Source of the DNA: Gentiana macrophylla
Taxonomy: Eukaryota > Streptophyta > Magnoliopsida > Gentianales > Gentianaceae
DNA: 64,000 nucleotides
Direction of reading: 5' to 3'
NCBI GenBank assembly: GCA_026214975.1
Contig: CM047807.1
Span: forward strand, 65,327,824-65,391,823
Of this stretch, positions 569 to 62,974 are shown in pieces. The notes under the pieces were generated by a model that had not been told where the DNA came from, ran no database searches, and saw only the letters and a list, made by a program, of their open reading frames with translations. Position 1 is the first letter of the stretch; each line of letters begins with the position of its first letter. Made by a program: the position numbers and the translations under genes.

Positions 569-604
569 TCGGTAACCTGGGAGGCGGTGCCGACTTACCA
601 AGAG
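569..604 (+). repeat. Paired dyad motif, GyA LTR copy
   Basis: TCGGTAACCTGGGA (569-582) is followed by CCGACTTACCAAGAG (590-604). The 3' LTR copy (14861-14895) has the better preserved TCGGTAAACCGGGA. The core is CGGT-AA-ACCG. Related pairs occur at 1871-1905 and 3543-3578. Confidence 0.5.
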
Positions 605-676
605 TCCAGATCCTTCTGAAACGCGTTTTCTTCTACCAGAGGTAGAACTAGATGTTTCTAAGTCGGTTTAGATAGC

Positions 677-685
677 TATAAATAA
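677..685 (+). promoter_or_regulatory. TATA box of GyA 5' LTR
   Basis: TATAAATAA lies about 425 bases into the LTR. The same sequence is at 14969-14977 in the 3' LTR. It is the likely core promoter of the genomic RNA. Confidence 0.7.
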
Positions 686-1715
686 GAGGCTTCACCTCCG
701 AACACATGTGTACAATTTTCAAGACAAATATTATGCAATAAAAGTTCATTTTTCTTTCTTTTATTTTTTTTCTGAGTTCTGGTCGGAGAGACGACGGAGT
801 CGCCGCCAAAGGAGAGATCCGAGGGAGATCTATGCTCGTCTTCGAGGGTACTATTTTCTGTCTTTTCCAAGATGTACATCTATCGTTGTTCTATTCGACT
901 AGTATGTTTTAATTGCTTATTTAGTTTAATTATGTAGTAGTTAGTTTATTTAGCCCATGTGTTGTAGATCTGATTCGTTGGTGAAAAAAATCATGAAATA
1001 GCGATTGCGTTCTTTAGATCTGTGACGGTCTATATCACTAGATCTGAATACCTAGTAAATTACTAATTCATGGTAATCGGTGCCAGCTACATTGATCGTT
1101 AGATTTAATTTACATGTTTTAAGCCTGATCAACTATTTAAATGTCATCGTAAACTAGCATAAAATACTAATAGTGAAGTGCTATGTTTGGACATTATCTA
1201 GAATGGACCCTAGGAACATGTTGATCAATGTTGACAGCTGTCTAGGCGGGTTTACGGTTTGAGTTAGCGCTCAATATCGACAGCTCTAGTTCTTTATGCG
1301 TATGGGCTATTATGGACCAATAATGGAGGGTAGCTTGCGTATAGATTTTCTACTACCATTGTCGGATTAGATAGGGTTAGGAGTTGTACCCGTAGCTGAA
1401 CAATGAATAAATTCACCAGTGGGGAGGATTGTTGCATGTGTGAGGGGAATAACTAATTACTCATAATTGAACTAATACATCAGAAACTCTAGTTTGCTAC
1501 TTTGAACTTGCATAATCTTGCTAGTTGATTGTTACCAATTTTTTTTACTATTGTCTATGTTATAGTTTTTCGTAGACCATTATCGTGACAAGCTCAATCT
1601 TGATAATTAGACGTTCTTACGAGTCTCTGTGGGATCGACCTTGACTCACCAGTACTCTACTACGATAGACGTAGTCCTATTCCTCGTAAGTGCTTTGAAC
1701 GCGATCAAGATTTTC

Positions 1716-1733
1716 TGGCGCCGTTGCCGGGGA
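1716..1733 (+). other. Primer binding site of GyA (tRNA-Asp type)
   Basis: TGGCGCCGTTGCCGGGGA is the characteristic primer binding sequence of plant Athila/Tat gypsy elements. It lies 8 bases after the LTR end. The identical 18-mer occurs at 60458-60475 in GyE. Confidence 0.9.
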
Positions 1734-2273
1734 CTCGTGTCAAGAATACTTTTTATTTAAGATTGAGTTTTCTGTATATATTTGAGTCTACTTAATCGAG
1801 TCTATTTTATTTTCTGTTTATACTAGAGTCATACAGTATCAATTTTGTTAAAAATCTTGAAAAATTGCTTCCGGTTTACCGAGTGTCCACCCAGATAAAC
1901 CGTGGGTCTAAATTTTGGCAGAATCATTTCTGTTAGTTCAGATTCAAGTCAGTAGTCAGAGTGTGTATTTTTTAGTTTGCCAGGCATGTGTAACAGCTGG
2001 CGAGGCAAGTCACTGACCCTTTTACTTTCTTTTTGTGTCTTGCAGTACGCTACACGAAGTTCAGCTGCCAAATTCAAGAGATTCATACCTGAGATTGAAA
2101 AGTTTGCTAGACAAAGGAGAAAGGAAACTTGAGAGAGACCTGTTTGGCTGGCGAATAAAGTGGTTTCGAATGAAGGAGATCACAACGAGAGGGAAGAAGA
2201 GGTTCCTCCTTTGGAAGATACAGAAATCAACATGGCACAGAACGGACAGAATGGATAGAATGGAGCAGGAGTT
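1734..2273 (+). other. GyA untranslated leader
   Basis: This is the leader between the PBS and the recognisable gag. It holds a paired motif at 1871-1905 (CCGGTTTACCGAG, then CCAGATAAACCGTGG). Short reading frames here have no recognisable product. Confidence 0.6.
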
Positions 2274-3887
2274 GTGGTACAAGCAGATAGAAGAACTCTA
2301 CAGAGTTATGCAATGCCAACGATTGAGCAATTCGTGCCAGTGATTGTTCAGTCTGAGGATGCAACTAAGGTATTTCACCCGAAACCAAATGTGATTCAGA
2401 TGGTGACTAATTACACTACCTTTCATGGAGTAATGAACGAAGATCCTAGTGTACACGTCACCAACTTTCTAGAAATAGTCAGCACGGTCAAGCCAGCAGG
2501 AGTACCGGGAGACAACATCAAGTTGAAATGGTTTCCATTAACTCTGAAGGACAAAGCGAAGATATGGTTATTGTCTCTAACACTAGGATCGATCCAAACT
2601 TGGACCGATCTATTGCAGAAGTTTATGAATAAGTACTGCCCATCTGGGAAGTCACTACAAATGAGACAAGACATTATGAACTTCAAGAAAAGACCCAATG
2701 AAACCTTGGAAGAAGCATGTGAAATATTTAAGGAAGCACAGAGGAGATGCCCAATTCATGATATCACTTTGCCTATATGAATGCATAGTTTCTATCACGG
2801 ATTACGACCAAGTGTACAAATGAGAGTAGATGCATCGAGCAACGGATGTTTTGCGTTGCTATCACCTGAAGAAGCCAAAGAGAAGTTGGAGTCAATCACA
2901 CTGACAAGTCAATGCCAAATTGAAACGGCCAAAGTAGCTGAAGGCGTACTTGGAGAAGATACTTCTCAACAGATCTTATTCCAGCTAATGGCAATGAATG
3001 AGAAGATAGATGGCATGCAAGATCGCATAGCCAAGGTTGAAAAAGTTCATGAAATTGAAGCAACTAACATTGAGGACGTGAACTATATAGGGAGGTAAGG
3101 AAATCATTATGGGGTCGGATATCGCCCAGGTTCTCATGACCACCCTGGAGGATTCATGCCTCAATTCAACAAGTCCGATGGTTGGGAAGCAGCCATGGAT
3201 AAAATGAGCTCAACTGTGACCGAAACGGTAAATCAACTTACAAAATCCATGACTGAGCTGAACACAATATTTACCACATATTTTTAGAAGAAGGATACAA
3301 GAATGACCAATCAAGAAGCATTGTTGCAGAATCTGTCACACCAAGTGGGGCAGATTGCAGAACAAGTGTCAGCCCGTCCTTCAGGAGGATTGCCAAGTAA
3401 TATTGAGAAAAATATGAAGAATGTGAATAAAATCTTGACTAGAAGTGGAAAGGAACTTCCTAGGTGAGTTATACCAACTGTCCAAGATGAATCAGAAAGC
3501 AGTCAGCTGCAGAACGCAGCAGAATCTGGAGAAAAAGAGGGGCCGGTAAATCGGGACACTACTCTGGTAAACCGGGAGTCTGAAAATTCATCTGACAAGC
3601 AGGCAGAGCAGCAGCAGTCAGTAGGTAAGTATTCACGAACTGTAACTATTAATCCTGCTACTTTACCCTATCCTCCTAGGAAATATAAGCCGATTAATGA
3701 TGATGCGCATTATAAAAAGTTTATAGAAATGTTTAAAAAGTTGCAATTGAATATATCTTTGGTAGAAGCTGTGGCCGGAATGCCAGAGTAAACAAAATTC
3801 TTGAAAGAATCAATCTCTACCAAAAGGAAGTTATTAGACCTTGAGACTATATGCCTTAACGAGGAATGTTCGACAGTTTTGCAATAC
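2274..3887 (+). pseudogene. GyA gag remnant (Retrotrans_gag type)
   Basis: This encodes the structural Gag of an Athila/Tat element, which would form the cytoplasmic virus-like particle. One frame runs from 2274 to 3887 and is broken by in-frame stops near 2778, 3096, 3285, 3465 and 3789 rather than by frameshifts. The middle part (about 2400-2800) has the retrotransposon gag pattern: WFPLTLKDKAKIWL, a W..L..KF..KY segment, then FKKRPNETLEEA and a YHGLRP-like segment. The tail has the Athila/Tat junction signature PYPPR and the segment leading to LNEECS before the protease. The frame ends exactly at codon TAC (3885-3887), where GyB inserted, and resumes in frame at 8687. The true start codon is unclear; the open frame extends upstream of 2274 but is less conserved. 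Confidence 0.82.
3543..3578 (+). repeat. Paired dyad motif inside GyA gag
   Basis: CCGGTAAATCGGGAC (3543-3557) and CTGGTAAACCGGGAG (3564-3578) are repeated with a 21-base period. They match the CGGT-AA-ACCG motif of the GyA LTR although they lie within the gag reading frame. Confidence 0.55.
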
Positions 3888-4572
3888 TGTAATATTCCGA
3901 TTTTCGAGAAAGGGCAGACGTGTCATTTTGGAGTTAAATTTTATAAGATAAATATATATATTTTTTAGGAATTTATATATATATATTTTAAGGAAATCTG
4001 ATTTTTAGGAAAAAGGGTAATTAAGGAAAAAAAGGGATTAGGTTAATTATTGGGATTTTCCTATTTAAGGAAAATAGACCCCAAACAGTTTTCCCTAATT
4101 ATTAATATCAGATTTTCCACCTCCTAATCCCTTCTACCAGCGTGTGAGAGCTTGAGAGAAAGGCTAAGAGTTTCTTCCATTTTCTAAGTCGGATCATAAC
4201 GGTTTTCAGATCAGAATAGGGCATCGGAATCGTCGTAAAGAGAGCATCGATTCAATATCAGAAAGTTGGAGCTTTTCCCAAGGTTTCTCTAGAAAAGGTG
4301 TTCGTTTGCTGCAGTCTTTCTGGGTTTTGGCTTGGATTAGCTTGCTTATAAGGTAAGAAGCTCTTCCTACAATTTCAATTATCATTATTGATGTTTAGAT
4401 CGTGTTTTCTGATGCGTAGATGTAAGAAAATTGGGCTTTTTCGTTGATCAAAGGATCATAGACGTTTAGATATGTTTTCTACGTTTTTCTGAGTTGAAAT
4501 CGATGTCAATTAGGTTAGAAACGGATCAGAAATCGCGTTTTTAAGATTTAGAATTTTGGGGAAAACCTAGGC

Positions 4573-4765
4573 GGACGGGCGTTTGCATTAGGCAAACGGG
4601 CGTTCGTGACCCTAGTAGCTCAGACGGGCGCCTCGCACAAGCGCACGGGCGTTTGAGGTCGAAATGTTGATTCGTGATGTAGTGTTTTTTTGATGCACGG
4701 GCGCCTGGTTTAGTGGACGGGCGTTCAAGGCCAAACAGGCGTCCATAGGATGTCAAACGGGCGTT
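4573..4765 (+). repeat. Cluster of paired ACGGGCG dyad motifs in GyB LTR
   Basis: ACGGGCG occurs at 4575, 4596, 4624, 4645, 4697, 4717, 4735 (as ACAGGCG) and 4757. Grouped as pairs the spacings are 21, 21, 20 and 22. Flanking bases often form arms around a central GG, for example CAAACG-GG-CGTT. The truncated 3' LTR retains copies at 7194, 7245, 7267, 7285 and 7307. Confidence 0.7.
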
Positions 4766-5224
4766 TCGCCTATTTTGGCTAGTTTTTACTGTTTTATCTT
4801 TTCAGCTTGGTTTTGGCTTCATAATCGTGTTTTCACTGTTTTAATCCCTTAGTCATGATATGTTAACATCAACTAAACATGAACAAACTTCGATTGAACT
4901 TCTGATTCGTTCAGTTAAAACACCGAATGTACTCTTAAAGGGAGATGAAGTTCGGATCCATCGGAAGGGCATGAAAGGGCTTGTGCTTTGATGAACTAGA
5001 GTTCATCAATGTCTGTGTAATTGCTAGGCCTTGTCTGTGTCTAGTGGTCTAAGAAAGGGAGTTAATTTTGTGAGGGAGCTTACTTGAAAACACTTAGGTG
5101 GCTAGTTAATAACCATTAATAATTACATACTTGCATAGTAATAAGATTAAACATCATGTCATCCTTGGTAAGGCACAAGACTATATCGCAATGTGTAGGC
5201 ATTCGGATAGGGCGAATAAACCAG

Positions 5225-5385
5225 CTGGCCTTTCTAGAGGCACCAGGAGTAGTGGGTTCTCGTTGTGGATAACTCTGATGGCCCAAGGGCACTAGGAGTA
5301 GAGGGACTTCACAGGTGAATAACTTTGCTGGCCATTAGAGGGCACCAGGAGCAGAGGGACTTTACAATTGAATAACTCCGTAGGT
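5225..5385 (+). repeat. Tandem repeat of about 50-53 bp in GyB LTR
   Basis: There are three units starting at CTGGCC or ATGGCC (5225, 5278, 5328). Each contains a GGCAC[C/T]AGGAG[C/T]AG core and ends near GAATAACT. The same array is in the 3' LTR from about 7773. Confidence 0.7.
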
Positions 5386-6135
5386 TCATAAGACCCCAAG
5401 TACGGAGGGACTTCGCCGAACACGTATACTATCGAGACTAGCCCATGTCTATTGGTGAGTTCCACCAATAGGTTGCACCCAGATGACTCGTGGTGGGCAG
5501 CACCATGCGTAGTGCCCTTGAATGCGGATGTAACAAAGATAAGCTAAGTTGGAAACAGTTAGTCATGACATGTTGATGGACATGAAGTGAACCCTTGATT
5601 GAGTCGGTCTCATAAAGATAATTAAAATAATAAACTTGTTAAAGAGCCTTAATTAAATTGTATCTTCTACTTCTTACTATGTACAATATACTTACCTCAA
5701 ATGCATGTTTATTTATGTGTTTGGGGGAGAGAAGACGAACAGGTAATCCCGCAGTTCGAGGAGGACTTTGATGACGACAATTAGGGACGCCGAAGTTGAA
5801 GGCTTTATTTATTTATATTTATATTCACTAGACTTGTTGTCGTTGGGGAATTTCTTGTAATTTTCTTTAGTACGTGCTTTCATAGGATTTCGTACGTTGT
5901 TACGTTTCGTTTGGTTTTCCAATGTAATAAATGTTACATTTCTATCTTTAGTATGTCGATTTCTATTCTTAGTAGCATTTATGATGTTTTGCCGAGTCTT
6001 TTGAGCTTCCGTTTTGCTGAACTCGATACGACGTAGTAGAGGCTTACAGGTAATATTAGATTTATTTAATGTCATACGTGCCGAGCATTTTGTTTCCGGA
6101 TAAGGACTCGGTATCCGGGAGCGGGGCGTTACAGT

Positions 6136-7189: not shown

Positions 7190-8681
7190 GCAGACGGGCG
7201 TTTGAGGTTAGAATGTTGATTCAGGATGTAGCTGTTTTTGACGGACGGGCGTTTGGGGTTTAGTGGACGGGCGTTCAAGGCCAAACGGGCGTCCATAGGA
7301 TGTCAAACGGGTGTTTGACCTGTTTTGCCTAGTTTTTACTGTTTTATCTTTTCAGCTTGGTTTTGGCTTCATAATCGTGTTTTCACTATTTTAAACCCTT
7401 AGTCATGATATGTTAACATCAACTAAACATGGACAAACTTCGATTGAACTTTTGATTCTTTCAGTTAAAACACCGAATGTACTCTTAAAGGGAGTTGAAG
7501 TTTGGATCCGTCGGAAGGGCATGAAAGGGCTTGTGCTTTGATGAACTAGAGTTCATCAATGTCTGTGTAATTGCTAGGCCTTGTCCGTGTCTAGTGGCTA
7601 AGAAAGAGAGTTGAGTTTGTGAGGGAGCTTACTTGAAAACACTTAGGTGGCTAGTTAATAACCATTAATAATTGCATACTTGCATAGTAATAAGATTAAA
7701 CATCATGTCATCCTTGGTAAGGCACAAGACTATATCGCAATGTGTAGGCCTTCGGATAGGGCGAGTAAACTTGATGGCCTTTCTAGAGGCACCAGGAGTA
7801 GAGGGCACTCGTTGTGGATAACTCTGCTGGCCCAAGGGCACTAGGAGTAGAGGGACTTCACAAGTGAATAACTTTGCTGTCCATTAGAGGGCACCAGGAG
7901 CAGAGGGACTTTACAATTGAATAACTCCGTAGGTTCATAAGACCCCAAGTACGGAGGGACTTCACCGAACACGTATACTATCGGGACTAGCCCGTGGCTA
8001 TTGGTGAGTTCCACCAATAGGTTGCACCCAGATGTCTCGTGGTGGGCAGCACCATGCGTAGTGCCCTTGAATGCGGATGTAACAAAGATAAGCTAAGTTA
8101 GAAACAGTTAGTCATGACATGTTGATGGACATGAAGTGAACCCAAGATTGAGTCGGTCTCATAAAGATAATTAAAATAATAAACTTGTTAAAGAGCCTTA
8201 ATTCAATTGTAGCTTCTACTTCTTACTATGTACAATATACATACCTCAAATGCATGTTTATTTATGTGTTTGGGGGAGAGAAGACGAAAGGTAATCCCGC
8301 AGTTCGAGGAGGACTTTGATGACGATGTTTAGGGACGCCGAAGTTGAAGGCTTTATTTATTTCAATTTATATTCACTAGACTTGTTGTCGTTGGGGAATT
8401 TCTTGTAATTTTCTTTAGTACTTGCTTTCATAGGATTTCATACGTTGTTACGTTTCGTTTGGTTTTCCAATGTAATAAATGTTACATTTCTATCTTTAGT
8501 ATGTCGATTTCTATTCTTAGTAGCATTTATGATGTTTTACCGAGTGTTTTGAGCTTCCGTTTTGCTGAACTCGATACGACGTAGTAGAGGCTTACGTGTA
8601 ATATTAGATTTATTTAATGCTATACGTGCCGAGCGTTTCGTTTCCGGATAAGGACTCGGTATCCGGGAGCGGGGTGTTACA
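7190..8681 (+). repeat. GyB 3' LTR, 5'-truncated
   Basis: It aligns with the 5' LTR from about 4640 onward and ends GGGGTGTTACA before the TSD. The break lies next to an ACGGGCG motif (7194-7200), so the deletion may have used the motif copies as short homology. Confidence 0.85.
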
Positions 8682-9238: not shown

Positions 9239-9346
9239 GAGAAATAGAACCTATATTTTCTGTGGATTTAGGAGGAACCTTTCATAGACCTTCGTGGCAC
9301 AATTTCTTTGACCTAAAATTGACTTGCAAGCTGTTAAGATCATATA

Positions 9347-10549
9347 GCCCCCAAAGACCGAGAGAAAACAACTTTCACATGTCCTTATGGAACTTATGCG
9401 TACAATCGCATGCCTTTTGGGTTATGTAATGCACCTGCAACATTCCAAAGGTGTACGATGTCATTATTTGCGGACATGGTGGAGGATTTTCTTGAGATTT
9501 TCATTGATGATTTCTCTATATTTAGAGATAGATTTGACAAATGCTTGGACAATTTGAGTAAAGTGTTAAAGAGATGTGAAGAGACCAACCTTGTACTTAA
9601 CTGGGAAAAATGTCATTTCATGGTTACAGAAGGAATAGTGTTGGGCCATAGAATTTCAAAGAAAGGAATGGAAGTTGATAGGGAAAAGATAGAGGTGATA
9701 GAGAAATTACCCATTCCGACAAACTTAAAGATGTTGCGAGCCTTTCTTGGCCACGCCGGATTATATGAGAGGTTTATTAAGGACATCTCTAAAGTTTATA
9801 GACCTTTGAAGGAATTGCTTGTGAAGGATGTACATTTCGTATTTCGAGAAGAATGCAAGAAAGCATTCAACACATTGAGACAAATGCTTATAACAGCCCC
9901 AACTCTGGTAGCACCAGATTGGAACAAACCTTTTGAGCTTATGTGTGATGCAAGCGACACGACAGTTGGAGCAGCCCTAGGACAAAGGGAGGATAAAATC
10001 TTTAAGTCTATCTATTGTGCCAGTCGTACCCTTAACCGGGCCCAGAGGAATTATGCGACCACAGAGAAGGAGCTCTTAGATGTTATCTTTGCATTCGACA
10101 AGTTTCGACCTTATCTGATAGGATTGAAAGTCACTGTATTCACTGACCATAGAGCTTTAAAATACCTTCTAACCAAGCAAGACTCCAAGCAAAAATTGTT
10201 GAGATGGATTCTACTCTTACAAGAGTTTGATGTGGAAATCAAAGATAAAAAGGGATCTGAGAACCAGATGGCTGATCACCTGTCGAGATTAACATTGCTG
10301 GAAGAAGAGCAACCGACTGAGATCAGGGAGAGCTTATCTGATGAACAACTTTTTGCCATCTCAAAGGTAGCTCGAAAGGAATCTCAGTCTCGACAACATA
10401 CATCAAAAGTACGCAAGGTATACCCTTGCTTTGCCAACATTGTGAATTATCTAGGAGGAAGGTACCTACCACCGGAATTCACGAATACGGATAAGAAGAA
10501 GTTTTTCACGTATCTGAAGCATTACCATTGGGACGATCCCTACCTATAG
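9347..10549 (+). pseudogene. GyA reverse transcriptase (5'-truncated) and RNase H
   Basis: The recognisable RT starts at about 9347 ([20 protein letters not shown]), so the fingers and motif A with its first catalytic aspartate are missing. Present are [13 protein letters not shown], the catalytic box FIDDFS (about 9500-9517), the GHRIS and thumb region (FLGHAG.Y.RFI), and the RNase H domain with [22 protein letters not shown] and [11 protein letters not shown]. The 379-codon stretch 9410-10549 is open. It would copy genomic RNA and remove the RNA strand. About 100 degenerate bases (9239-9346) mark the deletion. Confidence 0.87.
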
Positions 10550-11779: not shown

Positions 11780-13293
11780 TGTTAAGGGTGAAATTCATGA
11801 TTTATATGACGTTATTCCCGCAACAATATCCTTGGTATTTTAGTACTTTTTATAGAAAAGTGTTGGTTTTATCGAATTATTGAGTAAACGAGTTTTAAAT
11901 GTGTTTAAATGCAGAATCGAGATATTTACGTGATTTTAACGGTGTTTTATGTTTATCCGTATGATGTTACATTTTGCATGTTTCTATCATGTTGTTAGGT
12001 ACGTTTGCATGATGAGTAAGGAGCTTAAACGATGATCACATGAAGATGGAAGAGTTGAAAGATGTTTAAGTGAAGAATCATTGAAGAAACCGGAACCAGG
12101 CACTTCATGGGAATTTTATCCACACTTGTAGGCACTTTCAGGGAAAGTTGGCTTGATGAAAGTTGTAGAGGATTGAAATAGCTTTCCAACGCATGTTGAA
12201 TCACCTCATTCGGAGCCCTAGAAGTGAAGTTATGAGCAAAATACTGGAGCTGGGTCCTGGACGGGCGTCCATGATGATGAAGGAGCGTCCGGAGCGGTTA
12301 CTGTAGCAGCCGACATTGAAACTCTATATAAAGCAGCGGATTCTCATCACATTAACATACAATTCGAACCCTAATATCTTAGGGGCGGCTCAGGCTGCGT
12401 TTTTACCCTATTTTCTTCCAGTTTATGCACTTTAATTTCTAGATTAGATTAGGTAGATTTATGTTCTTTAATTCATCAATTTCAAGCTTTCAAAGGATGC
12501 TAAGAGGCTAATCCCTCTTTGAACAAGAGTTGTGAAGCCGTCCATCAACAATTCAGTTTTGTTCGTGATTAATTCGTGAGTTTCTACTTCGAAGTTGTTT
12601 CTTTTATCATTGTTTATTATTGTGTATTGCAATTACATCGAAAGATCTTTGCTTTTATGATTGTTTTAACTTGATGAGAGTCATGTTAATGTTAGATCAC
12701 CATGATAAAAGTTTAGACCTTTAATCTAATCAAAACGAAAGTTATTAGATTGATTTTCTAGATTAGAAATTGAAAGATTTCACGCCTATGTTAGAAAGAC
12801 GTAATCTTTAACATCGAAAGATAAAAGATTAGAAAACGAACTTGTCTACGAGAGTAGGAGTTTATGCCTTCGATTAGGTGAATCACGACTTGAGTAGAGA
12901 TCACGAAATAATCCGAATTGGAATTGAATGTTGATAGGATAGGTGGATCAATTGCTTGTTCGCTTCGTTATACTTGATTTAAATCCTTTAAAACTTGAGT
13001 TGCATAGTTTAGTTTATCTTTTTGCACTTAGTTTAGTTTAGTTAATAAGTTCACACTCCGTATCTTGCCTAGCATTGGAGTAATCCTCTGTCTAGTTAAT
13101 TTTCTGCATATTTGGTAGTTTAGTTCTTCGTTTAGTTTAGCTTCGTGACATAGGTTAGTTTAAACAAAAACTAGGATTCACAACAGTCTAGTTCCCCGTA
13201 AGATCGACCCGGCATAGCCTCTATACTACGATCCTTGCACTTGAGGTTAACCGGTTTATTACTTGTTGTTTTGTATTGATAAAATCCAGGACA
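11780..13293 (+). repeat. Solo LTR (S) inserted in GyA, TSD TTTAG
   Basis: A perfect 5-bp duplication TTTAG flanks it (11775-11779 and 13294-13298). It has TGT...ACA ends, a TATA box TATATAAA at 12325-12332, and near its end GATCGACCCGG, resembling the GATCGACC phrase of Athila LTRs. There is no PBS or internal sequence, so it is a solo LTR of 1514 bases. It holds one motif pair at 12259-12290 (GGACGGGCGTCC, then AGGAGCGTCC, 20 bases apart). Confidence 0.8.
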
Positions 13294-14542: not shown

Positions 14543-15269
14543 TGATGAAGGTTAAAATAGTCTATCATACAACATCAACATTCTATCCATTATGAGATAA
14601 AAATAGTTGTTTCGACCGATAAATATGAACCATTTGAGTTGAATAGCACATGTCGGGTTCGTGAGTCGAGAAATCTGCACTTAGCGTTTATTTTCCTTCT
14701 TTCGATATTATTTCGTGCATTATTTGATGAATTTCAAGATACGAAATATTGGGCGGAGCAACATGGACGAATCTGGAATGGACAGAATGAAAGGAATAGG
14801 CCTAGGATATTCCAGAACATTCCAAGTTAAGTCGGCTGAAGAAAAAGGACGAAAATACCCTCGGTAAACCGGGAGGCGGTGCCGACTTGTCGAGAGTCCA
14901 GATCCTTCCGAAACACGTTTTCTTGGACGAGGGGTAGAACTACATGTTTCTAAGTCGGTTTAGATAGCTATAAATAAGAGTCTTTGCCTCAGAACACAAG
15001 TGTACGATTTTCAAGACAAATATTACGCAACAAAAGTTCATTGTTCTTTATTTTATTTATTTTATGAGTTGTGGCTGGAGAGACGACGGAGTCGATGCCT
15101 AGGGAGATATCCGAGGGAGATCTACGCTCGTCTTAGCGGGTATGATTTTCTGTCTTTTCCAAGATGTAGATCTATCGTTGTTCTATTGGACTAGTATGTT
15201 TTAATTGCTTATTTAGTTTAATTATGTAGTAGTTAGTTTATTTTTCCCCTTGTGTTATAGATCTGATTC
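14543..15269 (+). repeat. GyA 3' LTR, cut by CoA
   Basis: It matches the 5' LTR from 252 to about 975, then stops at ATCTGATTC where CoA begins. It retains the TATA box (14969-14977) and the paired motif at 14861-14895. Confidence 0.88.
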
Positions 15270-15604
15270 TGTTGGAAATAAAATTTATGTTTTGATGATA
15301 ATTCATCTTATTTGTTAAAATATTATCTTAACCCCATTGATGAAGTGCTGAAGCCAGCTGTTATAGTGGAAAGCTAAAATATGTCTAGAACTGAATGTAT
15401 AAGTTTTACTAGAGTCTGATATTTGTATAGGTTACATCACACAAGCACTGAAATTATTAGTGTGCCGTAAAACTGAAATCTGGAAATCATTTAGAAAACT
15501 GGAAATCTTCGAGACAAGAAAACTGACTCAGAATACACCTACATAAAACTGAAGAAGGTAAGTTCGCTGAGAGTTACTGACTCAGTTGACTTATCTAAAA
15601 GATC

Positions 15605-15705
15605 GAAGAACTGAGGGTTCAAACTCAGTTATTGAAGAATGAAGAACTGAGGGTTCAAACTCAGTTATTGAAGAATGAAGAACTGAGGGTTCAAACTCAG
15701 TTATG
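15605..15705 (+). repeat. 36-bp tandem repeat with ACTGAG/CTCAGT dyads
   Basis: Units start at 15605, 15641 and 15677. Each contains AACTGAG-N8-CTCAGTT, a 7-bp stem. The 3' LTR has only two units (from about 26041 and 26077), so the LTRs differ by a unit gain or loss. Confidence 0.8.
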
Positions 15706-16146
15706 AAGATTACAAGTCGAGACTGTAAAGTTGGATTTCAGGCAAGATTGTGGTGACCTGAACTGACTTTATGGATCTTGTACGAAGACTTAAGAATCAT
15801 AAGGACAATGAATTCTTAGATGATAATGAATCATGGTGTACTCTGATTAAGTCAATTATAATCAGATGAAAACAGGAGTATTGATAGTTGAAGAAGAGTA
15901 AAATATCAGTTAATGCTTCAAGTCAGTTAGGAAACTGACAAAAGAAAAACTCATTACAAAACTGATAAGGAAACTCAGTTTTATAAGTCAGCCATCCAAC
16001 AAACTGAATGTACAGTCGAACGTTGTAAAGAAAACAATTTCATTGGATGAGTTACTGACACAACAGAATGGTCAGAAAATATAGCCGTTGCAAGATAGAC
16101 GTTGATACAATTCAAATTGAAGCTAGATGAACGTTGGACTTCACAC

Positions 16147-16154
16147 TATAAATA
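16147..16154 (+). promoter_or_regulatory. TATA box of CoA 5' LTR
   Basis: TATAAATA in CACTATAAATAGAAG, with an identical context at 26548-26555 in the 3' LTR. It is the probable core promoter for the genomic RNA. Confidence 0.75.
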
Positions 16155-17054
16155 GAAGACTTTGCACCAACAAGAAAATAAATAGAACAGAGCATATACA
16201 AGAATCAACAATCAATTTTGTGCATCTGTCTATTCTATTCGAATTGCTATCATCTCTGAACTATAAAAAGATCATATCTAGTATTTCTTCAAGTGTTCAA
16301 GCTACAAAGAATTTATCAATATTTCAACACATTGAAGAACCACAAACAAGAATCAACTTATTGATTCTCAGCCCAACCTTGATTCTACATCAAAGGTTTT
16401 AGACTGTGAAGCAAACCGGGAAGGTTTCGCCAAGGACAATTGTGACAAGCAGTCGGGTAGACTGTGTTTGTGGTGGTAGCTGGTGAAGAGGCAATCCTAC
16501 CCTCTAAGGATCAGTGGTTCAAGCATTTGAAGAGCAGCAATTCTACCTGTTCTACAACTTTTTAGATAGTGAAGCTAGGGATTAGCCAAGGACTATTGTT
16601 TAGGACTTTTGTAACAATTCACCTCAAGAAGTTCTAGTGGAATTTTCCTCCGCACTACAGGAAAGAGAGGACGTACATGATTACATCACCTGAACCTCTA
16701 TAATATCCGCCTTAATTACTTTACGCATTTATTTATTTATTCAAAGATTTACTTACAACATTGTGATTCTTGATTGTTACACTCTCACAATCAACCGACA
16801 TTCACCGTAATTCGATTCACAACACTCGATTTTCATAATAGAATAACAAGATCAAGAAAAAGGCTAAAATCATATCCGCTGCCGGTTGACTGAGTTTCAG
16901 CTTAAGTCAGTTTGACTTAATCTCAGCTTTGTCAGCTTAAGTCCACACAAGTTTTTAACTGAACCTTAATTTGCTTTAAATCTAGTTTTAGGGACAAGTT
17001 TATTCACCCCCCCCCCCTCTAAACTTGTGTTAGCCTTTCCAAAGGACCAACAAT

Positions 17055-17066
17055 TGGTATCAGAGC
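17055..17066 (+). other. Primer binding site of CoA (tRNA-iMet)
   Basis: TGGTATCAGAGC lies two bases after the LTR end, the standard plant copia primer site. Confidence 0.9.
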
Positions 17067-22656: not shown

Positions 22657-22676
22657 GTCAGTTAAGCCAGAGATTC

Positions 22677-46220: not shown

Positions 46221-47566
46221 GTTCTGGTCAGTGTCTCGGTGGCATGCAGTGCAGTGTCGAGATAGCAACCTTAACTCTAGAAATTGATTTTATACTATTT
46301 GTAGTTAATCTAGAACTGAAATATTGTTAAATAGTGTTATATGAGTAATTTGTGCAAGTTTCTGGTTTCTAGAAATCATGTTTTAGGATTTGTAATGAAT
46401 GATGATCTTGTTCATGTTTTAGCTGGTATATTAAAAGGATCTTGATATTGCGGTGAATACCAGATTTGCGGTAAGAGAAGTATTTTGTGGATATCCGGAG
46501 AGAATACGGTGGTGAACAAGAACAAGGTTGTCGGACTATAGCTTATGAGAGTAAACACAAGTGATTCGACAAATTGACGGAGTAGCTCTGTGTATATTAG
46601 TTCTTGGATGCTTTGTATTACATTGTGACCCCATATATATAGGCTGAGACTAAGTCATTCTTTTGTTCATGACAAGACAATTTAATGAATGTAATTAGAG
46701 ATAATCATACAAACAAATACAAGTGGATTGGCCAGCTGTCTTGATAGGTATGGCGGGTAGCGGAGTCGTCTGTAGGTCGGACTCATATTTGCCTTGTCTT
46801 GATATCAGCCTGAGTATGTGGGTAAAAATCGCACGGAGTGGAGGGGCCCGGCTTACAGATAGCGGACAAGATCTGGCTTACAGATAGCGGACAGGATCCA
46901 GCTTACAGATGGTGGACAGGTCCCGGCTTACGAACGTCGGGTAGGATCTGGCTTATGAGTTGCGGACTAAGAGGAAGGAGGCCTAAGACCTGTTATTGGG
47001 CTATCTAAATAGGCCCAATCTAGGTGAACAGGGCCCCAATCCGGTTCGGGTATATCAATGGCCCCCTACTCTGCGCCTGGCTTGCCTGCCGAGGCAGAGA
47101 GTAGAGTTTGAAGAAGCAGCTGAAAGTCGCACCCTTATGTTGTCGTTCATGACAGAGGTGTGCTGATAGCAGTTTTCGGGCTAAGATCAGTGTTGACATT
47201 GTGTTGCCAATTATTGATAGATGTTGTGCATTGTAGATGCCGATAATGTTCTATATGGATTTAACCAGTGTTAGTATCGTGTAGCGAATTACCAGTTGTA
47301 TGTTGTGCATTGTAGCGGACAGGCTTAGATGCCGATAACGCTCTATTGGCTTAGATTTCCATGCGCAGAGCAACGGGCTTAGATGGCCTGAAGCTGTGTT
47401 GAATGGAGGCCGTAAGCCGCTTGAAGTGAGATCGCTGACCATAACAATCTGAGGCCGTAGGCTATATGGCGTTGAGGTCGCAAGTGGGGACCAGAGCAGT
47501 TGGAGCAATAACGGACGTATGGGTTCATGAAACGCCACGTCTGTTACGTTTTCCTGACATGATGTT
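46221..47566. other. Non-coding repeat-rich segment before CoD
   Basis: No convincing ORF. It contains CATATATATAGGC (about 46629-46641), a 25-bp tandem array (46850-46974), the phrase TCAATGGCCCCCTACTCTGC (47056-47075) and repeated words such as TGTTGTGCATTGTAG (47222-47236, 47300-47314). It continues across CoD: ATGTT (47562-47566) is duplicated at 56380-56384, so this DNA and the GyT unit were contiguous before CoD inserted. It may be LTR or promoter sequence of GyT. Confidence 0.45.
46850..46974 (+). repeat. Five tandem 25-bp repeats
   Basis: Units start exactly at 46850, 46875, 46900, 46925 and 46950, each beginning [G/A]GCTTA and containing a [G/T]GCGGAC- or GGTGGAC-like centre. Units 1 and 2 are nearly identical and the last two are more diverged. 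Confidence 0.85.
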
Positions 47567-57054: not shown

Positions 57055-57055
57055 A

Positions 57056-58330
57056 ATGTCTTCAGAGCGCACCTTGTCACAATCAGCTGAAGAAAACTGG
57101 CATGTTGTCGGCTATGGCTCTGAGGAGGTTAGCATGGAGGAGGTTAGCTCGAGTGATGCAGAGGAGGAGGTAGTCGAAGAGGAGAGAGGAAAAATCGACG
57201 TTGATTCTGACTCAAGCGCTGAAGCGGAAGGTGAGAAAGTTGTAGTAATTGGTGAGGGTGCTACTGGTTGTGAGGTCGAGGATGAACACCAGGCTTCGCT
57301 GAGCGACCTTATTAATAGGATCGAGAAAGTGAGAAGTCCTGGGGCTGCCAGCCGTAGTGCGATGCTCAAGGAAGCCGTGGAAACAGCGGAGGTGTCGAAA
57401 AAGACCGGTGTGTCAAAGAAACAATCGACGTCTAGGAGAGGTAGAGCGGCCAAGGAATTAGTCGTATCAGACAAGCCCGAGAAAAAGAAGAGGCCGCCTA
57501 AAAAGAGGTCAATCGCCTTTGACATGGAACTTGCGGAGCAAAAATGAGCCGATAGAAATCTCATAATTCGATGGAGGGAATTTCGAGATCGGGTTGATTA
57601 TACATCGGCGGTGACCGCTTATGACATTCCGGATGACTACCGATTCGTTAGTATGGGTTCGACGAATATGTCGCAGACGTGCGGCCGGGATACCAAGGAT
57701 TTTCTGTGGCTACACTACGACCACCTAGTTTCCGGACTTAGGCCACCCTTTGATCCGTTCTTCGTCACATTCATGGAAGAATTAAAGGTTATACATTGCG
57801 ACCTTAGTCTGGGGGTAGTCCCGGTGGTGATGTCTTTTATCATAATCAGTCGGCTTCGTGGTCGTGAACCGTCGATGGCGGCGCTGCTACATTTTACGGT
57901 TTAACAAGAAAGGGCAACGCTGGACAAATTCAACCACGGAGCAGAATGAGTAGTGGTAGACCTCGATTTCTATTCAATCTTCCCGACAAAGTTACGGACT
58001 GGTACAAGAGGTGTATGAGAGTCGAATCACGAGTGGATGGCCATTTCAAAAGATCCCCGTGAACTCTGTGCAGACCAATCACTTGAAAGATATCCAAACC
58101 CAGGAGGACGACGACGAGTTTATAGCTGACCTCAAAGAGTTGCTCGGATTTGTCTGAAAATATGTCGAACAAACCCGAGCCTTTAATTGGAGGTTGCTTT
58201 TAAACGATAGGAAACCTTATCTTAGGAGGGCCGGGCTGCCCACAGCCGGCGTCGGGAAACCCTTGGTGGTGGTTGACCCTTTGCCCACTGATCCCAATTG
58301 GTACGGGGAGTGTCATCATGGAAAATGCAT
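57056..58330 (+). pseudogene. GyT gag-like protein ('putative gypsy type transposon' class)
   Basis: ATG 57056 (MSSERTLSQSAEENWHVV) begins an acidic N-terminus, a basic stretch (KKKRPPKKRS) and ELAEQK. A TGG-to-TGA type stop (57545-57547) follows, then the same frame continues RDRVDYTSAVTAYDIPDDYRF to GLRPPFDPFFVTFMEEL and VVPVVMSFIIISRL, ending at a stop at 57902-57904. The GLR.P.HPF pattern followed by a hydrophobic block is typical of the plant family known as putative gypsy type transposon (Transposase_28, PF04195); I could not run a domain search. Further fragments in other frames (RPRFLFNLPDKVTDWYKR, then DPNWYGECHHGKC) continue to about 58330. The product is unassigned; these are usually gag-like proteins of non-autonomous gypsy elements. 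Confidence 0.6.
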
Positions 58331-58482: not shown

Positions 58483-58752
58483 ATGGATTCTCTAGAACAA
58501 CACAGTCTGTTGAGCACCATGAAGACTACCGGCAAGGTAAAGAGAGCTGCCGTGTTAAAGGGAGTTAAGACCTTGCTCCCTTCGGTCGAGATCCGAAAAA
58601 GGGCGGCTAGAGCTTCAGGATACCAGGCTGGGAAGTCGGCTCTCCCACCAGTGAAACAAATGGTGGAGAAAGCTGTGGCCGGCAAATCCCTCAAGCAGAT
58701 GATAACGGTCATTTTGTGCCCGTTATTCTATGACCATTATCCCCGATTCTAG
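58483..58752 (+). CDS. GyT downstream exon-like ORF, unknown
   Basis: ATG 58483 (MDSLEQHSLLSTMKTTGKV) follows the acceptor-like site and codes about 89 residues. It is basic, with alternating lysine, arginine and alanine segments (RKRAARASGYQAGKSALPP), and ends at TAG 58750-58752. No domain is recognised. It could be a later exon of GyT or a chance ORF. Confidence 0.35.
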   Translation: MDSLEQHSLLSTMKTTGKVKRAAVLKGVKTLLPSVEIRKRAARASGYQAGKSALPPVKQMVEKAVAGKSLKQMITVILCPLFYDHYPRF

Positions 58753-59000
58753 TTTAAAGGAGCTATAATAGTGTAATAATAAGTCGTAATATGCTTAATT
58801 TGCATATGCCGAGAGTTACGATTCATTATTATGTATTAAGAGGTTTTATTATATTATTTGATGTTACAGACTGTATGTCATGCTATATTTGTAGTAACTC
58901 ATTTGGGAGCACAAGGATGGACTTCGGAGAAGCTTTAATGGATCGCAGACAAGTTTAGAAAGCCCAAGACGGAAAAAGAAGAAAGCCCAGAAGAACATAA

Positions 59001-59040
59001 GGCTCGGTCGACCGAGCCTATGCATTCGGTCGACCGAGTG
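59001..59040 (+). repeat. Paired TCGGTCGACCGA motif, GyE LTR cluster 1
   Basis: Cores are at 59004-59015 and 59026-59037, a 22-base period. The first lies in an 18-bp perfect palindrome GGCTCGGTCGACCGAGCC (59001-59018). Confidence 0.85.
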
Positions 59041-59560
59041 GGCCTGTAGCCCAGCAGAAGTCCGGCACATTGTTGAGGCGGTTAGGGTTCAGTAGTGTCG
59101 GCATTTAAGTCGGTTTTCTATGTCGGCTGAGGCTCTATATAAACACAAGTCCTTTGTATTTTTTATTATGCATTCACCAATATCAATTCGTATATACAAA
59201 TAAGCAAATAAGGATTCATTAGGCTTGTGGAGGAGCTGAGGGTGCAAACATGTAAGCCCTAGTTCTTCATCTTGTTTTCTTTTAGTAATCAATTTCCCAA
59301 TTATGCTTTGATTGTTTGAGTAGTTATTCATATCTAGATGATGTAGATCCAGGATATGACGTTAGGGCAGTGGTGATACCTTGTCTATGAGGATCCCATA
59401 CCCTACGTCCTCTACCTATTATCTATGGATGAATCTGCGTGTTTAATTTACGTGTATTTAGATTAATTTATATGATGTCCTGATGATTCACTATATAATC
59501 CGATTCGTATGTGAAACGCTGAGAAATATATTCGGGGATGTAATCTGGGGAGTTAAGTAC

Positions 59561-59616
59561 TCGGGTGACCGAGAGGTGTCACTCGGTCGACCGAGAGCAC
59601 CTATTCGGTCGACCGA
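59561..59616 (+). repeat. Triple TCGGTCGACCGA motif, GyE LTR cluster 2
   Basis: A degenerate copy TCGGGTGACCGA is at 59561-59572, with perfect cores at 59583-59594 and 59605-59616. The period is exactly 22 bases throughout. Confidence 0.85.
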
Positions 59617-60457
59617 GAGCTTTCAAACTGTTTCATCCGTTAATCCATCCACGTCTTTATGATTAGGTTAGCTTAATTGAATCTGTTATCTCAGTAGGTA
59701 TGGCTATGGCTACGTCACTCGCTTAATTTAATTAAAACGTGTAAAAAGGAAATACCGATATAAAACTCTTAGGTAGGCTCATAAATTGATCTTCGGACGT
59801 TCAGCGTTATCTAGGTAGGTTTATATTAGGGAATTGCGCGCACCTTGTTTTACGTAGATCGTAAACTAGCATGAGACTATAACTTGGTAATTGTTAGTTG
59901 GACGAGAGTTCGAGTGATCATTTAGGAAGTACGCCTAACCATAGGAATGTTGCCTGGACGAGGTGTATGGTTAATATCGGCATCCTTAGAGTCGTAAGCG
60001 TGTGAGTTATATGAGATGGAGGCACCAAAAGGCGAAGTCACGTAACAATACCACAGTGATATAGTGACCTACCCGCTACATCAAGTTTTGAGGGATGACT
60101 CCGTAGCCAATATAAATAGATATGAGCGGATTAATAGTTGATGAGTCTTGTTGTTATATAAATTGTCTAGATCCAAATAATTACGGTTATAATTGGGCGC
60201 TTGATTACCTTATTTGTTTACATGTTGTTTGTTTATATGTTTGAGTGTGTCTTTCTTTCTCGTATTCTATGTTGGTCATAGACCGTCTTTTGTCAAACGA
60301 AATAAATAGGTTGACTATTTAAGTTAGGATCCACAAATTGATTCTCTGTGGGATCGACCTCGACTCTATCTACCTATACTGCGATTGAACCTAGTTCACT
60401 TGCTAGTGGTTATTTAGGAATCGAGTTAATAATTTAACTTGACCTCAATCAAGTTTT

Positions 60458-60475
60458 TGGCGCCGTTGCCGGGGA
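60458..60475 (+). other. Primer binding site of GyE (tRNA-Asp type)
   Basis: TGGCGCCGTTGCCGGGGA, identical to the GyA site. Confidence 0.9.
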
Positions 60476-60584
60476 ATCAATGGTCTAACTGCTTAAATGA
60501 TCTACTTAATTATTTCGTTTCTCTGTTTTCTTTCATATTTACATAAAAAAAATAAAAAAAATAAAAAAAAATATATCTGTATAT

Positions 60585-60618
60585 TCGGTCGACCGAACGT
60601 TATCACTCGGTCGACCGA
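60585..60618 (+). repeat. Paired TCGGTCGACCGA motif, GyE leader
   Basis: Cores are at 60585-60596 and 60607-60618, again 22 bases apart. The pair follows an A-rich tract (60544-60572), downstream of the PBS. Confidence 0.85.
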
Positions 60619-60663
60619 ACCCATTATTTTTTTTCTATATTTTCTGATAGTTGTTTTCCCCCT

Positions 60664-60981
60664 GTGATTCTGTTAGTAGGTTATAAGCCTAGCAGCGGTA
60701 TGAGTAATCATCTTGCTGTTAGTTCAATAACCGTTTGTTTTTCTTATGATGCGATTAATCGGAGGAATCACTCAAGCGAATGTTTAGCAAGATGTCATCA
60801 CATCGATTTTACGAGGTTCAAGGAGAAGAAGTCATGGTCTTTGAGAACCAAAACCACACCTAGAAAGCCGTTGACACCTAAACTCAAGGAGAGAATAGCA
60901 AAGATGAAGGCAAGAATTCACGAAGCCAAGAAGTCAAAAGAGTCTAAAGATGCTTACATATACAGAGTATGTCCAAGTTAA
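60664..60981 (+). CDS. Small basic ORF in GyE leader, unknown
   Basis: About 105 codons ending LKERIAKMKARIHEAKKSKESKDAYIY. The second half is a strongly charged helix, possibly the stub of gag after deletion of its central domain. No gag signature remains. Confidence 0.35.
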   Translation: MILLVGYKPSSGMSNHLAVSSITVCFSYDAINRRNHSSECLARCHHIDFTRFKEKKSWSLRTKTTPRKPLTPKLKERIAKMKARIHEAKKSKESKDAYIYRVCPS

Positions 60982-61969
60982 TTCTGAAGAGATATCTTCA
61001 GATTCGGACTCGAGGATATGACTACATGCATCACATGTCAGATATAGAATCTGATTCTGAGGTTAGCATAGACCTAAATCACCATATAGTCATATGTCCT
61101 AGAGATGCAGCGCATATTGAGAATGAAGCTCGGTTGATGCCGAAACTAGATGACCCAGGAGCATTTATGGTAGAGGTTACCTTAGAAGGAACATACCTAG
61201 GGTTGGCTTTGATAGATTAAACTCGAGTCCGAACATTTTCCCGAAGTGTCTTTGTGATAGAAATCTAATCCTTACTCCCACGAATACTCCGTTGCAAGTT
61301 AGATTTGCGGATGGGACCAGAACAATCATGTCTGGAAATATGTATAATATGATCATTGGCATAGGACATCTCAGGTTTAAGATAGATATAGTTGTTATGG
61401 ATATAGATGAGCACCCTCGCTGCCCGATCATTTTAGAGAGAGCCTTTATCAATACTTCTAGAGCCCTAATTCGTATGACCATGTGTGAGATCACATTTTT
61501 CGATGCTAGAGGTTCTGAGACCTATGGGACGAGGAATTCAGATTTCCCTACTCCGGTGAGCGTGAATGTTATAGGAGTTGGTAGTTCGAAACCAGATATT
61601 ACTCCGGGACTAGGAAAAAGTGTCCATGACAAGACAGAAGAAAGAGATAAGACCCTTACAGTTCTGAGTCATGAGAAAGCTGTCGAGCCTGCCCCTGTTC
61701 TAGAAAATCATAATCCTGAAGGCCTGCCTTTCTCCAGACCCAAGACTAGAAGGAAGCAAACAAAGAAACGAACTCGTCGAGTTCGAGCTAAAGAGAGCTC
61801 ATCTACTTCTGAAACAATCACGAAAGTTGGAGCTTGCTTGGATGGAGCGAGTTCAGTATTTTTAGTTGGACTCACATCTCACGGAAAGGCACTCGTGCAA
61901 AAGGACAGCAAGACATTTTCGGTAAAGGCTAACCGGGTGAAAACCTGGCAAGCCAAGAGCAGTTCGTAG
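60969..61969 (+). pseudogene. GyE aspartic protease remnant with a pol C-terminal-like tail
   Basis: Segment 60969-61220 codes DDPGAFMVEVTLEGTYLGLALID, then a single-base frameshift breaks the catalytic loop region (I-D-L..SSPNIFPK, about 61206-61243). The second half (61292-61500) reads VRFADGTRTIMSG and DIVVMDIDEHPRCPIILERAF, matching the ADGT and VVxDxxxxxxxPIILGRPF patterns of the protease (GyA has PLILGRPF). After this the reading frame carries serine/lysine-rich linkers and ends FSVKANRVKTWQ, which resembles the end of an integrase such as FTVNGHWLKQY in GyA. I infer that RT, RNase H and the IN core were deleted between them. The order after the protease is uncertain. Confidence 0.6.
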
Positions 61970-62974
61970 AAAGTGATGATTTATGGAAAGTCGAGCTACC
62001 GACTTAAACTGTAGAACTATTTCTATTCTTAGTTATTTTATGTTAAAAAATAAAAGTAGCGTGAAACGATAAGAAGTTTTTTTCTATTTTGCCGTGTTCC
62101 GACGACTGCTGAGTTAAGGATGTGCAAAATAATTTTTTTTATTCGAATTGTCTTCATGTGAAATGGAGTGTAGTAACTGAGTCTTTGTAAGAATTGTTGA
62201 TTAAGGAAATAGAAATGCGTTATTTTACAAATACTTAGACCAGAGTGCTTGATTTAAGAGATTGCCTTTTGTGCTTGAGACAACTTGTCGGTTGAAAAAA
62301 AAAAATAAAATTTTGTGGTAGGAATTGCAAAAGTGAAATAATAATTTTGGCATGGTTATATGTTGTAGTTAATTTACGGTGTGTCAAAACAATTAAAATG
62401 GTCAACACCATAAATTTCTACATATCCCCATTCACCTTTCCCTCTTCCCAACCATTCACCTTTTCCTCTTCCCAATTTCTTTATTCTTCCAATTCAAAAT
62501 TTCAAATTCCACCTTTACACCTCATCAATCCCCAACAATTTTTATCCACCAATCACATTCCACTTTGCAAATTCCATTTTTCTATTTAACCCACTCATCC
62601 TCTCTTTCATTTTCTTCATCCTTTTCTCCATCTTCTTTCTCTACCTTTTTCCCAAACCCTTGTAGAAATCAAATGGAAGTGTTTTGAAAATCTTCATCCA
62701 TTTCACCATTTTCACTCACTTTTGAAAATCACAGTCGAAATATTTTACGATAGACCAAATCAGTCCATCGGGACAATACAGGGCGGAAACCCACCATTTC
62801 AGGCGAACTCATCACTCGGTCAACGAGTAATTACTCTCGGTCGACCGAGAGTAGCCTGCTGTGCCGCCGCCCACTACGTGCCACTTTTACGTCGGGATGC
62901 CACCAAGAAGACACAGAGCCGCTCAGTTTGTGGCAGTTGCAGGCGACATTCCATTAATCAATGGGGTACCATAA
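61970..62974 (+). other. GyE non-coding segment before the env-like ORF
   Basis: No gene is recognised. It has a pyrimidine-rich stretch (62425-62700: CCCATTCACCTTTCCCTC and similar), a weak TATA-like CTATTTAAC (62582-62590) and a motif pair at 62816-62848 (one degenerate copy, TCGGTCAACGAG, and TCGGTCGACCGA at 62837). The layout resembles a promoter and leader for the next ORF. Confidence 0.45.

What the first reader, a model, noticed from the sequence alone, without database searches (positions are those of the whole stretch)
569..62848. Common design: family-specific dyad words in two-turn pairs across unrelated gypsy elements
Four gypsy-type elements each use their own 10-14 bp dyad with a 2-bp centre (AA, CG, GG), repeated at 20-22 bp, in LTRs and in GyA and GyE also in internal sequence. 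A shared design with diverging words fits co-evolution with a binding factor, such as an element-coded protein telling its own DNA or RNA from relatives, or a host zinc-finger-like repressor or activator. I know of no description of this; the function is speculation.
Basis: partly seen in the sequence, partly recalled or inferred. Interest (0 to 1): 0.88.

Follow-up and report, generated by a model that had tools for sequence, protein, structure and literature searches.

The report
Paired palindrome boxes in gypsy retrotransposons
Two gypsy-type jumping elements in this plant-like DNA carry short palindromes (imperfect in one of them) set in pairs 21 or 22 bases apart, one element having the same palindrome core as boxes published for an unrelated copia-type element, and these are likely landing sites for a plant regulatory protein rather than a private code of each element.

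Summary
GyE (from 58701, Athila-like) has seven exact CGGTCGACCG dyads; six form three pairs, each exactly 22 bp apart, in U3, U5 and the post-PBS leader. Its boxes are 96% identical, its spacers near random, so recent tandem duplication is unlikely. GyB (chromovirus-like LTR) has eight ACGGGCG boxes readable as four pairs at 20-22 bp, but weakly dyadic. GyA (Athila-like) has three imperfect CGGT-NN-ACCG pairs, all at 21 bp; unsupervised search does not rank this word first. The fourth element, a solo LTR, has one good dyad and no convincing pair. Three copia control stretches have no CGGT pair.

The words are not four private codes: GyA and GyE share arms CGGT/ACCG; GyB and the solo LTR share ACGGGCGT. 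GyE's core equals the 'RM' box printed for a Vitis Sirevirus (Ty1/copia; PMC2829016). The design is thus described, but in another superfamily and, in the sections read, without fixed two-turn spacing.

Best explanation (inferred): enhancer-type sites for a dimeric host transcription factor, paired for cooperative binding. The window's own genome could not be searched (19 busy replies), so conservation across copies is untested.

The parts
58701..60450 (+). GyE 5' LTR (Athila-like; ends placed by eye)
   Evidence: read from sequence; PBS follows at 60458
59005..59036 (+). GyE U3 box pair CGGTCGACCG x2, 22 bp apart, 131 bp upstream of TATA-like 59136
   Evidence: TATA
59562..59615 (+). GyE U5 boxes at 59562 (1 mismatch), 59584, 59606; 22 bp steps
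60458..60475 (+). GyE primer binding site TGGCGCCGTTGCCGGGGA
60586..60617 (+). GyE leader box pair, 22 bp apart, 128 bp after the PBS
62817..62847 (+). GyE exact box 62838-62847 inside a 22-bp perfect palindrome (62832-62853), with a damaged, one-base-short copy at about 62817
62975..63838 (+). Open frame with PF20167 (putative plant transposon protein) downstream of the last GyE box; the frame from the ATG at 62897 holds a stop
252..1705 (+). GyA 5' LTR (Athila-like; ends placed by eye)
   Evidence: 252-991 matches 14543-15284 at 90%
570..600 (+). GyA U3 box pair 570/591, 21 bp, imperfect; 107 bp upstream of TATA-like 677
1716..1733 (+). GyA primer binding site TGGCGCCGTTGCCGGGGA
1872..1902 (+). 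GyA leader box pair 1872/1893, 21 bp, 156 bp after the PBS
3544..3574 (+). GyA internal box pair 3544/3565, 21 bp, downstream of gag
   Evidence: gag PF03732
14862..14892 (+). GyA 3' LTR boxes CGGTAAACCG (14862) and, read from the sequence, CGACTTGTCG (14883)
9338..10549 (+). GyA reverse transcriptase / RNase H frame
   Evidence: PF00078, PF17917
3888..6132 (+). GyB LTR (chromovirus-like by its TTACA / TGGTATCAGAG junction, a recalled hallmark), nested in GyA
   Evidence: 4645-6133 matches 7194-8681 at 95%; junction read
4575..4764 (+). GyB boxes ACGGGCG, eight copies readable as four pairs (4575/4596, 4624/4645, 4697/4717, 4735/4757)
7194..7314 (+). GyB second LTR boxes (7194, 7241, 7245/7267, 7285/7307)
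11780..13293 (+). Solo LTR, Athila/Tat-like 3' end by eye, 5-bp flanking repeat TTTAG
   Evidence: three other candidate end pairs were listed, one of them also with a 5-bp repeat
12259..12270 (+). Solo LTR dyad GGACGGGCGTCC, 66 bp upstream of TATA-like 12325

Best explanation
The boxes are likely cis-regulatory sites at which dimers of a host transcription factor would bind, two dimers side by side on one face of the DNA since their centres lie two helical turns (20-22 bp) apart, and would drive the retrotransposon promoter. Shown here: exact dyads and exact 22-bp spacing with near-random spacers in GyE, and in both Athila-like elements a pair 107-131 bp upstream of the TATA-like box and 128-156 bp after the PBS. 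Inferred: protein binding, cooperativity, activation, and that the binder comes from the host. The inference to a host factor rests on the same core being shared by different elements here (CGGT-NN-ACCG in GyA and GyE; ACGGGCGT in GyB and the solo LTR) and, for GyE, by a Vitis Sirevirus. A candidate class, untested, is the plant LOB-domain (LBD) proteins: zinc-finger-like dimers reported to discriminate palindromic DNA (passage in PMC10118128).
For: GyE: 7 exact boxes; three exact-to-exact pairs and one pair with a one-mismatch copy, all at 22 bp. Box identity 0.96 against spacers 0.36/0.31 and random 0.26. Pair excess for arm CGGT: 5 in GyE against 0.015 expected and 2 in GyA against 0.015, reached by none of 200 shuffles in either case. 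GyA and GyE LTRs give significant alignments only near the LTR 3' end and PBS, yet both hold a pair at LTR offset 318/304 and PBS +156/+128; random placement gives both coincidences in 0.4% of trials, a rough figure whose tolerances were set after seeing the data. Precedent: Sirevirus RM boxes, dyads with CGG-CCG core, clustered upstream of TATA and upstream of ENV, Vitis core CGGTCGACCG.
Against: Only one copy of GyE, and two LTRs each of GyA and GyB, are at hand, so selection on the boxes is not shown. The U5 and leader boxes lie downstream of the TATA-like box, unusual for a promoter enhancer. GyB words are weak dyads, and GyA fails the unsupervised tests as a discovery. Of six AT-rich loci with the same PBS, four have no CGG-CCG dyad from 2.3 kb upstream to 500 bp downstream of it, L026 has one and L094 two, and in none of the six does one CGG-CCG word recur. 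[quoted passage not shown]
Confidence: 0.5

Rival explanations
1. An element-coded DNA-binding or anti-silencing protein (VANC-like) reads the boxes, and boxes and protein co-evolve per family.
For: VANC proteins of Arabidopsis VANDAL transposons bind short motifs that form tandem repeats in noncoding DNA and vary between related elements (PMC5735166 passages). GyE has an extra frame with PF20167 just downstream of a box. Retand elements carry antisense TRP28 genes whose domain probably can bind DNA (PMC11963269 passages).
Against: The cores are shared between different elements rather than private. The PF20167 frame gives no hint of DNA binding here: no PDB relative by sequence and a useless single-sequence fold (pLDDT 34). 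VANDAL elements are DNA transposons (recalled).
Confidence: 0.15
2. The pairs act as RNA or single-strand hairpins: two palindromes 22 nt apart form a 13-14 bp stem with a short loop, serving dimerization or packaging, or feeding host small-RNA production.
For: The GyE U5 and leader pairs fold into perfect 14- and 13-bp stems with 8- and 10-nt loops, and the U3 pair into a 14-bp stem extended by two pairs beyond a bulge (-22.8 to -28.0 kcal/mol). In GyA 1872/1893 the second word loses its own symmetry but still pairs with the first. An excess of small RNAs maps to Sirevirus palindrome clusters according to a citing paper (PMC10760457 passages).
Against: Direct repeats of a palindrome always can fold this way, so the fold is no independent evidence. 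Boxes also sit in U3 and far inside the element. The pre-ORF boxes and the 14862/14883 copies fold locally, each on itself.
Confidence: 0.15
3. No function: helical-length tandem duplications of GC-rich words that drift, with the dyad symmetry seen by selection of examples.
For: CGGT is not the top word in GyA, GyA LTR plus leader is negative, and the solo LTR does not stand out. An Athila/Tat-like LTR in L026 has an 11/23-bp array upstream of TATA that is plainly tandem (period 46, 92% match).
Against: GyE spacers are near random while boxes are almost identical, and spacing is exactly 22 in the 4 adjacent pairs of exact or one-mismatch boxes.
Confidence: 0.2

Closest known systems
Repeated-motif (RM) boxes of Sirevirus (Ty1/copia) LTR retrotransposons, PMC2829016
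   Same: Palindromic boxes, nearly all with CGG-CCG core, that vary in centre and flanks by element; in the LTR upstream of TATA and 5' of an extra gene; Vitis core identical to GyE (CGGTCGACCG).
   Different: Carrier here is Ty3/gypsy (Athila-like by PBS and, for GyA, RT); copies come as pairs with fixed 21/22-bp spacing (the sections read give no spacing); copies also in U5 and after the PBS. GyB and the solo LTR lack the CGG-CCG core.
VANC target motifs of VANDAL transposons, PMC5735166
   Same: Short repeated motifs in noncoding parts of a plant transposon, differing between related families.
   Different: DNA transposons; motif YAGTATTAY is not of the CGG-CCG kind; a binding protein is known there, none here.
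Retand (Tat) tandem repeats and TRP28, PMC11963269
   Same: Non-chromovirus gypsy elements with family-specific repeats and an extra gene that probably can bind DNA.
   Different: Repeats there lie between pol and the 3' LTR; no dyads or two-turn pairs in the passages read.

Membership tests
Sirevirus RM box (GyE) | Palindrome with CGG-CCG core | tested here: met
   7 exact CGGTCGACCG; same letters as the Vitis RM
Sirevirus RM box (GyE) | At least eight copies per element | tested here: inconclusive
   7 exact plus 1 one-mismatch copy in the part of GyE in the window; the 3' LTR lies outside
Sirevirus RM box (GyE) | Cluster in the LTR upstream of TATA | tested here: inconclusive
   Pair 59005/59027 is upstream of TATA-like 59136, but 59562-59606 is downstream; other TATA-like words exist in the LTR
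Sirevirus RM box (GyE) | Extra copies 5' of an ENV-like gene | tested here: inconclusive
   Box 62838 ends 49 bp before the ATG of a broken PF20167 frame; ENV identity not tested
Sirevirus RM box (GyE) | RM cluster forms a CpG island | tested here: inconclusive
   LTR CpG o/e 1.09, GC 0.39; the CpG-island program was not run
Sirevirus RM box (GyE) | Carrier is a Ty1/copia Sirevirus | tested here: not met
   GyE has the same PBS and a matching LTR 3' end as GyA, whose RT/RNase H is of gypsy type and which has PF03732 gag; no RT of GyE is in the window
Sirevirus RM box (GyB, solo LTR) | CGG-CCG core | tested here: not met
   Core is ACGGGCGT
Athila/Tat lineage (GyA) | PBS TGGCGCCGTTGCCGGGGA (recalled as typical) with gypsy-type RT, RNase H, integrase | tested here: inconclusive
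   PBS 1716; PF00078 and PF17917 met; rve is below the curated cut-off. No RT tree was built.
VANC/VANDAL system | Element-coded protein that binds the motif | not testable with these tools
   Only a PF20167 frame of unknown function

The most novel reading that the evidence does not exclude
One host regulatory code is used across superfamilies: Ty3/gypsy Athila elements and Ty1/copia Sireviruses independently settled on the same CGG-CCG dyad box, laid out in the gypsy elements as two-turn pairs at set points (U3, leader, before the extra gene), because one plant factor family reads it; a second core, ACGGGCGT, is likewise shared by a chromovirus and an Athila-type LTR.
Probability: 0.3. Interest if true: 0.7.

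Novelty: new variant of a known kind. Interest (0 to 1): 0.45.

Why it matters
If the same palindromic box drives retrotransposons of two superfamilies, the factor that reads it would be a common switch for large parts of plant genomes, and it becomes findable: the box is short, exact and paired. It would also move the Sirevirus RM box from a genus-specific feature to a general regulatory module, and give a concrete probe for an old question, what activates or silences LTR promoters in plants.

Tried and rejected
Own-genome search for the GyE word: 19 identical requests, all answered busy, so copy-level conservation stays untested. Protein search with the PF20167 frame: 603 candidates, none at E 0.001. 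Viral contigs with GyA RT: 10 stretches matched a pattern, none confirmed. The CGGTCGACCG pair pattern gave 12 viral contigs and the PBS 4, none with GC under 0.5; read as GC-rich phage and not pursued. The Athila LTR-end pattern gave 0. The chromovirus PBS pattern gave 2 AT-rich loci with long frames across the site, rejected as retroelements without a family search. CACCGGACTGTCCGGTG gave 6 contigs, all GC 0.58-0.63, and the CGGTAAACCG pair 9, of which 4 were checked (GC 0.46-0.60) and 5 were not; one match each, not pursued.

Prokaryote genome contigs with the PBS: 97 loci, 9 with GC under 0.5 overall or locally, 6 taken as plant-like by eye (L026, L048, L055, L071, L094, L100; L100 is doubtful). 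Only L071 was confirmed by gag and integrase similarity to GyA. Over the whole loci CGG-CCG dyads number 1, 4, 1, 0, 6 and 5; no word recurs within a locus. L026 has an 11/23-bp array just upstream of TATA, and L071 repeats TCCACTTGGA (5 exact copies, 85-147 bp apart). In the dyad-pair test at 20-22 bp family-wise p was 0.06 (L026; 0.01 at 19-24 bp), 0.03 (L048), 0.15 (L055), 0.01 (L071), 0.34 (L094) and 0.03 (L100); best words were TTAA in L071 and L100 and GGCG in L048.

A first max-count test with 4 mismatches was swamped by AT-rich words and shows nothing, GyE included. In the repeated-dyad count GyA, the solo LTR and one copia LTR show nothing like GyE. AF2 model of the PF20167 frame: pLDDT 34, not used. 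Rfam and tRNA scans: nothing.
Full report
What is there. The window is a nest of plant-like LTR retrotransposons. GyA is Athila-like: gag PF03732, RT/RNase H PF00078/PF17917 and an integrase match below the curated cut-off, PBS at 1716, LTR copies 90% alike. It holds two inserts: GyB, whose LTR junction reads as chromovirus type, and a solo LTR at 11780-13293 with a TTTAG flank. Between 15264 and 56384 lie elements whose LTRs match one another; copia-type domains were found in two frames there, at 17034 and 21400, and I take the related LTR elements as copia. GyE starts at about 58701 with a 1.75-kb LTR, has the same PBS at 60458 and runs off the window.

Checking the words. CGGTNNACCG occurs 9 times, 7 in GyE and 2 in GyA, against 0.11 expected. 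In GyE the exact boxes lie at 59005/59027, 59584/59606, 60586/60608 and 62838, with a one-mismatch copy at 59562; the four neighbouring distances inside these clusters are 22. Before 62838 stands a damaged copy at about 62817, one base short and 21 bp away (read). GyA has 570/591, 1872/1893 and 3544/3565, each 21 apart, with 2+3, 0+2 and 1+1 mismatches. GyB has eight ACGGGCG boxes spaced 21, 28, 21, 52, 20, 18, 22, which I read as four pairs. The solo LTR has the only other ACGGGCGT of the window, inside GGACGGGCGTCC, 66 bp upstream of its TATA-like box.

Chance. In a strict test over 23 regions (10-mers with 4-base arms and 2-base centre, at most one arm mismatch, at least 9 of 10 letters shared), pairs at 20-22 bp appear in 5 regions: GyE LTR 6, GyE interior 3, GyB first LTR 4 (three of them an AT repeat), GyB second LTR 1, and one pair in 28-34 kb; the other 18 regions, GyA and the solo LTR included, have none. 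The GyE counts are three pairs seen in three registers each. In the unsupervised test over all 256 arms, done piece by piece, family-wise p is 0.005 (the floor) for GyE and GyB, 0.010 for GyA, 0.239 for the solo LTR, and 0.299, 0.050 and 0.244 for three copia stretches. In GyB an AT word and TTCA rank beside GACG and AACG. In GyA the top word is ACAC and CGGT is second (2 pairs against 0.015 expected). For GyA I therefore rely on CGGT as a word already fixed by GyE, not on discovery. On GyA LTR plus leader alone the test is negative.

Tandem duplication. In GyE the eight 12-base boxes (62817 left out) are 0.96 identical on average; the ten bases to the right and left are 0.36 and 0.31 identical, random 10-mers 0.26. 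Within clusters spacer identity runs from 0.1 to 0.5. A recent duplication would leave similar spacers. An old duplication with only the boxes kept remains possible, and would itself mean that the boxes are under constraint.

Layout. The LTRs of GyA and GyE give clear alignments only near the 3' end and at the PBS. Still, both carry a pair at LTR offset 318 and 304, upstream of a TATA-like box at 425 and 435, and a pair 156 and 128 bp after the PBS. Random placement gives both coincidences in 0.4% of trials; the tolerances were chosen after the fact, so this is a rough guide.

What is known. PMC2829016 (passages, and sections 9, 10 and 19) describes in 13 Sireviruses a repeated palindromic motif, with CGG-CCG core in all but one, variable by element, mostly in the upper half of the LTR and upstream of TATA and, in elements with ENV, also upstream of that gene; the Vitis consensus is CGGTCGACCG. 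The authors call it Sirevirus-specific against the classic Ty1/copia elements they compared, and could identify no site for a single factor. PMC10760457 (passages) says that small RNAs map in excess to maize Sirevirus palindrome clusters and that the palindromes may be cis-regulatory; the primary paper is not held. A full-text search for four box words together with 'retrotransposon' returned 4 papers; only PMC2829016 prints CGGTCGACCG. Other searches were seen as listings: Athila and palindrome terms (13 papers, 39 papers of which 20 listed), gypsy, palindromic and U3 (1 paper), Athila with DAP-seq (2 papers). The titles and abstract starts show no such description for gypsy elements, which does not prove that none exists.

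Interpretation. Two cores serve four elements, each core shared between elements whose LTRs barely align otherwise. One of the cores also serves a copia Sirevirus named after Vitis. This pattern fits a factor supplied by the host better than one supplied by each element. Dyad symmetry suggests a dimer; two helical turns suggest two dimers on one face. LOB-domain proteins are a candidate because they are zinc-finger-like dimers reported to discriminate palindromic DNA (introduction of PMC10118128, passage; the structural paper itself is not held). None of the binding steps was tested here.

Limits. No second copy of GyE and no plant genome could be searched. Six plant-like loci picked up by their PBS from prokaryote assemblies hold scattered CGG-CCG dyads but no recurring one, so the box is not general in this lineage; L026 shows instead a tandem 11/23-bp array in the same place, just upstream of TATA.

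Noticed in passing
58701-64000, 252-1705, 3888-6132 versus 15284-22888: The gypsy-type stretches keep CpG near expectation (o/e 0.89-1.25 in 7 stretches) while the 2 copia stretches measured are depleted (0.47, 0.35), although a copia element appears inserted in GyA and so would be younger.
   Followed up: partly
L026 1219-1410 (on the strand with the PBS forward): A plant-like Athila/Tat LTR in a Streptomyces assembly contig has an 11/23-bp array (CACTAATGGAG / CCACCATTGTG) ending about 30 bp before its TATA box.
   Followed up: partly
L071 320-740 (on the strand with the PBS forward): Plant-like contig in a Blastococcus assembly, with gag and integrase similar to GyA, repeats the dyad TCCACTTGGA at 85-147 bp spacing.
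   Followed up: partly
L026, L048, L055, L071, L094: Plant-like retrotransposon DNA appears inside bacterial genome assemblies, probably contamination from host or reagents.
   Followed up: no
57548-57904: Weak match to Transposase_28 (PF04195, E 0.019, below cut-off) upstream of the GyE LTR, perhaps a remnant of another Tat-type element.
   Followed up: no
46848-46931: 25-bp tandem repeat (CCGGCTTACAGATAGCGGACAAGAT, 3.4 copies) in a stretch between two copia-like LTR elements.
   Followed up: no
62590-62660: TATTTAA followed by a pyrimidine-rich stretch upstream of the last GyE box, possibly an internal promoter; seen by eye only.
   Followed up: no
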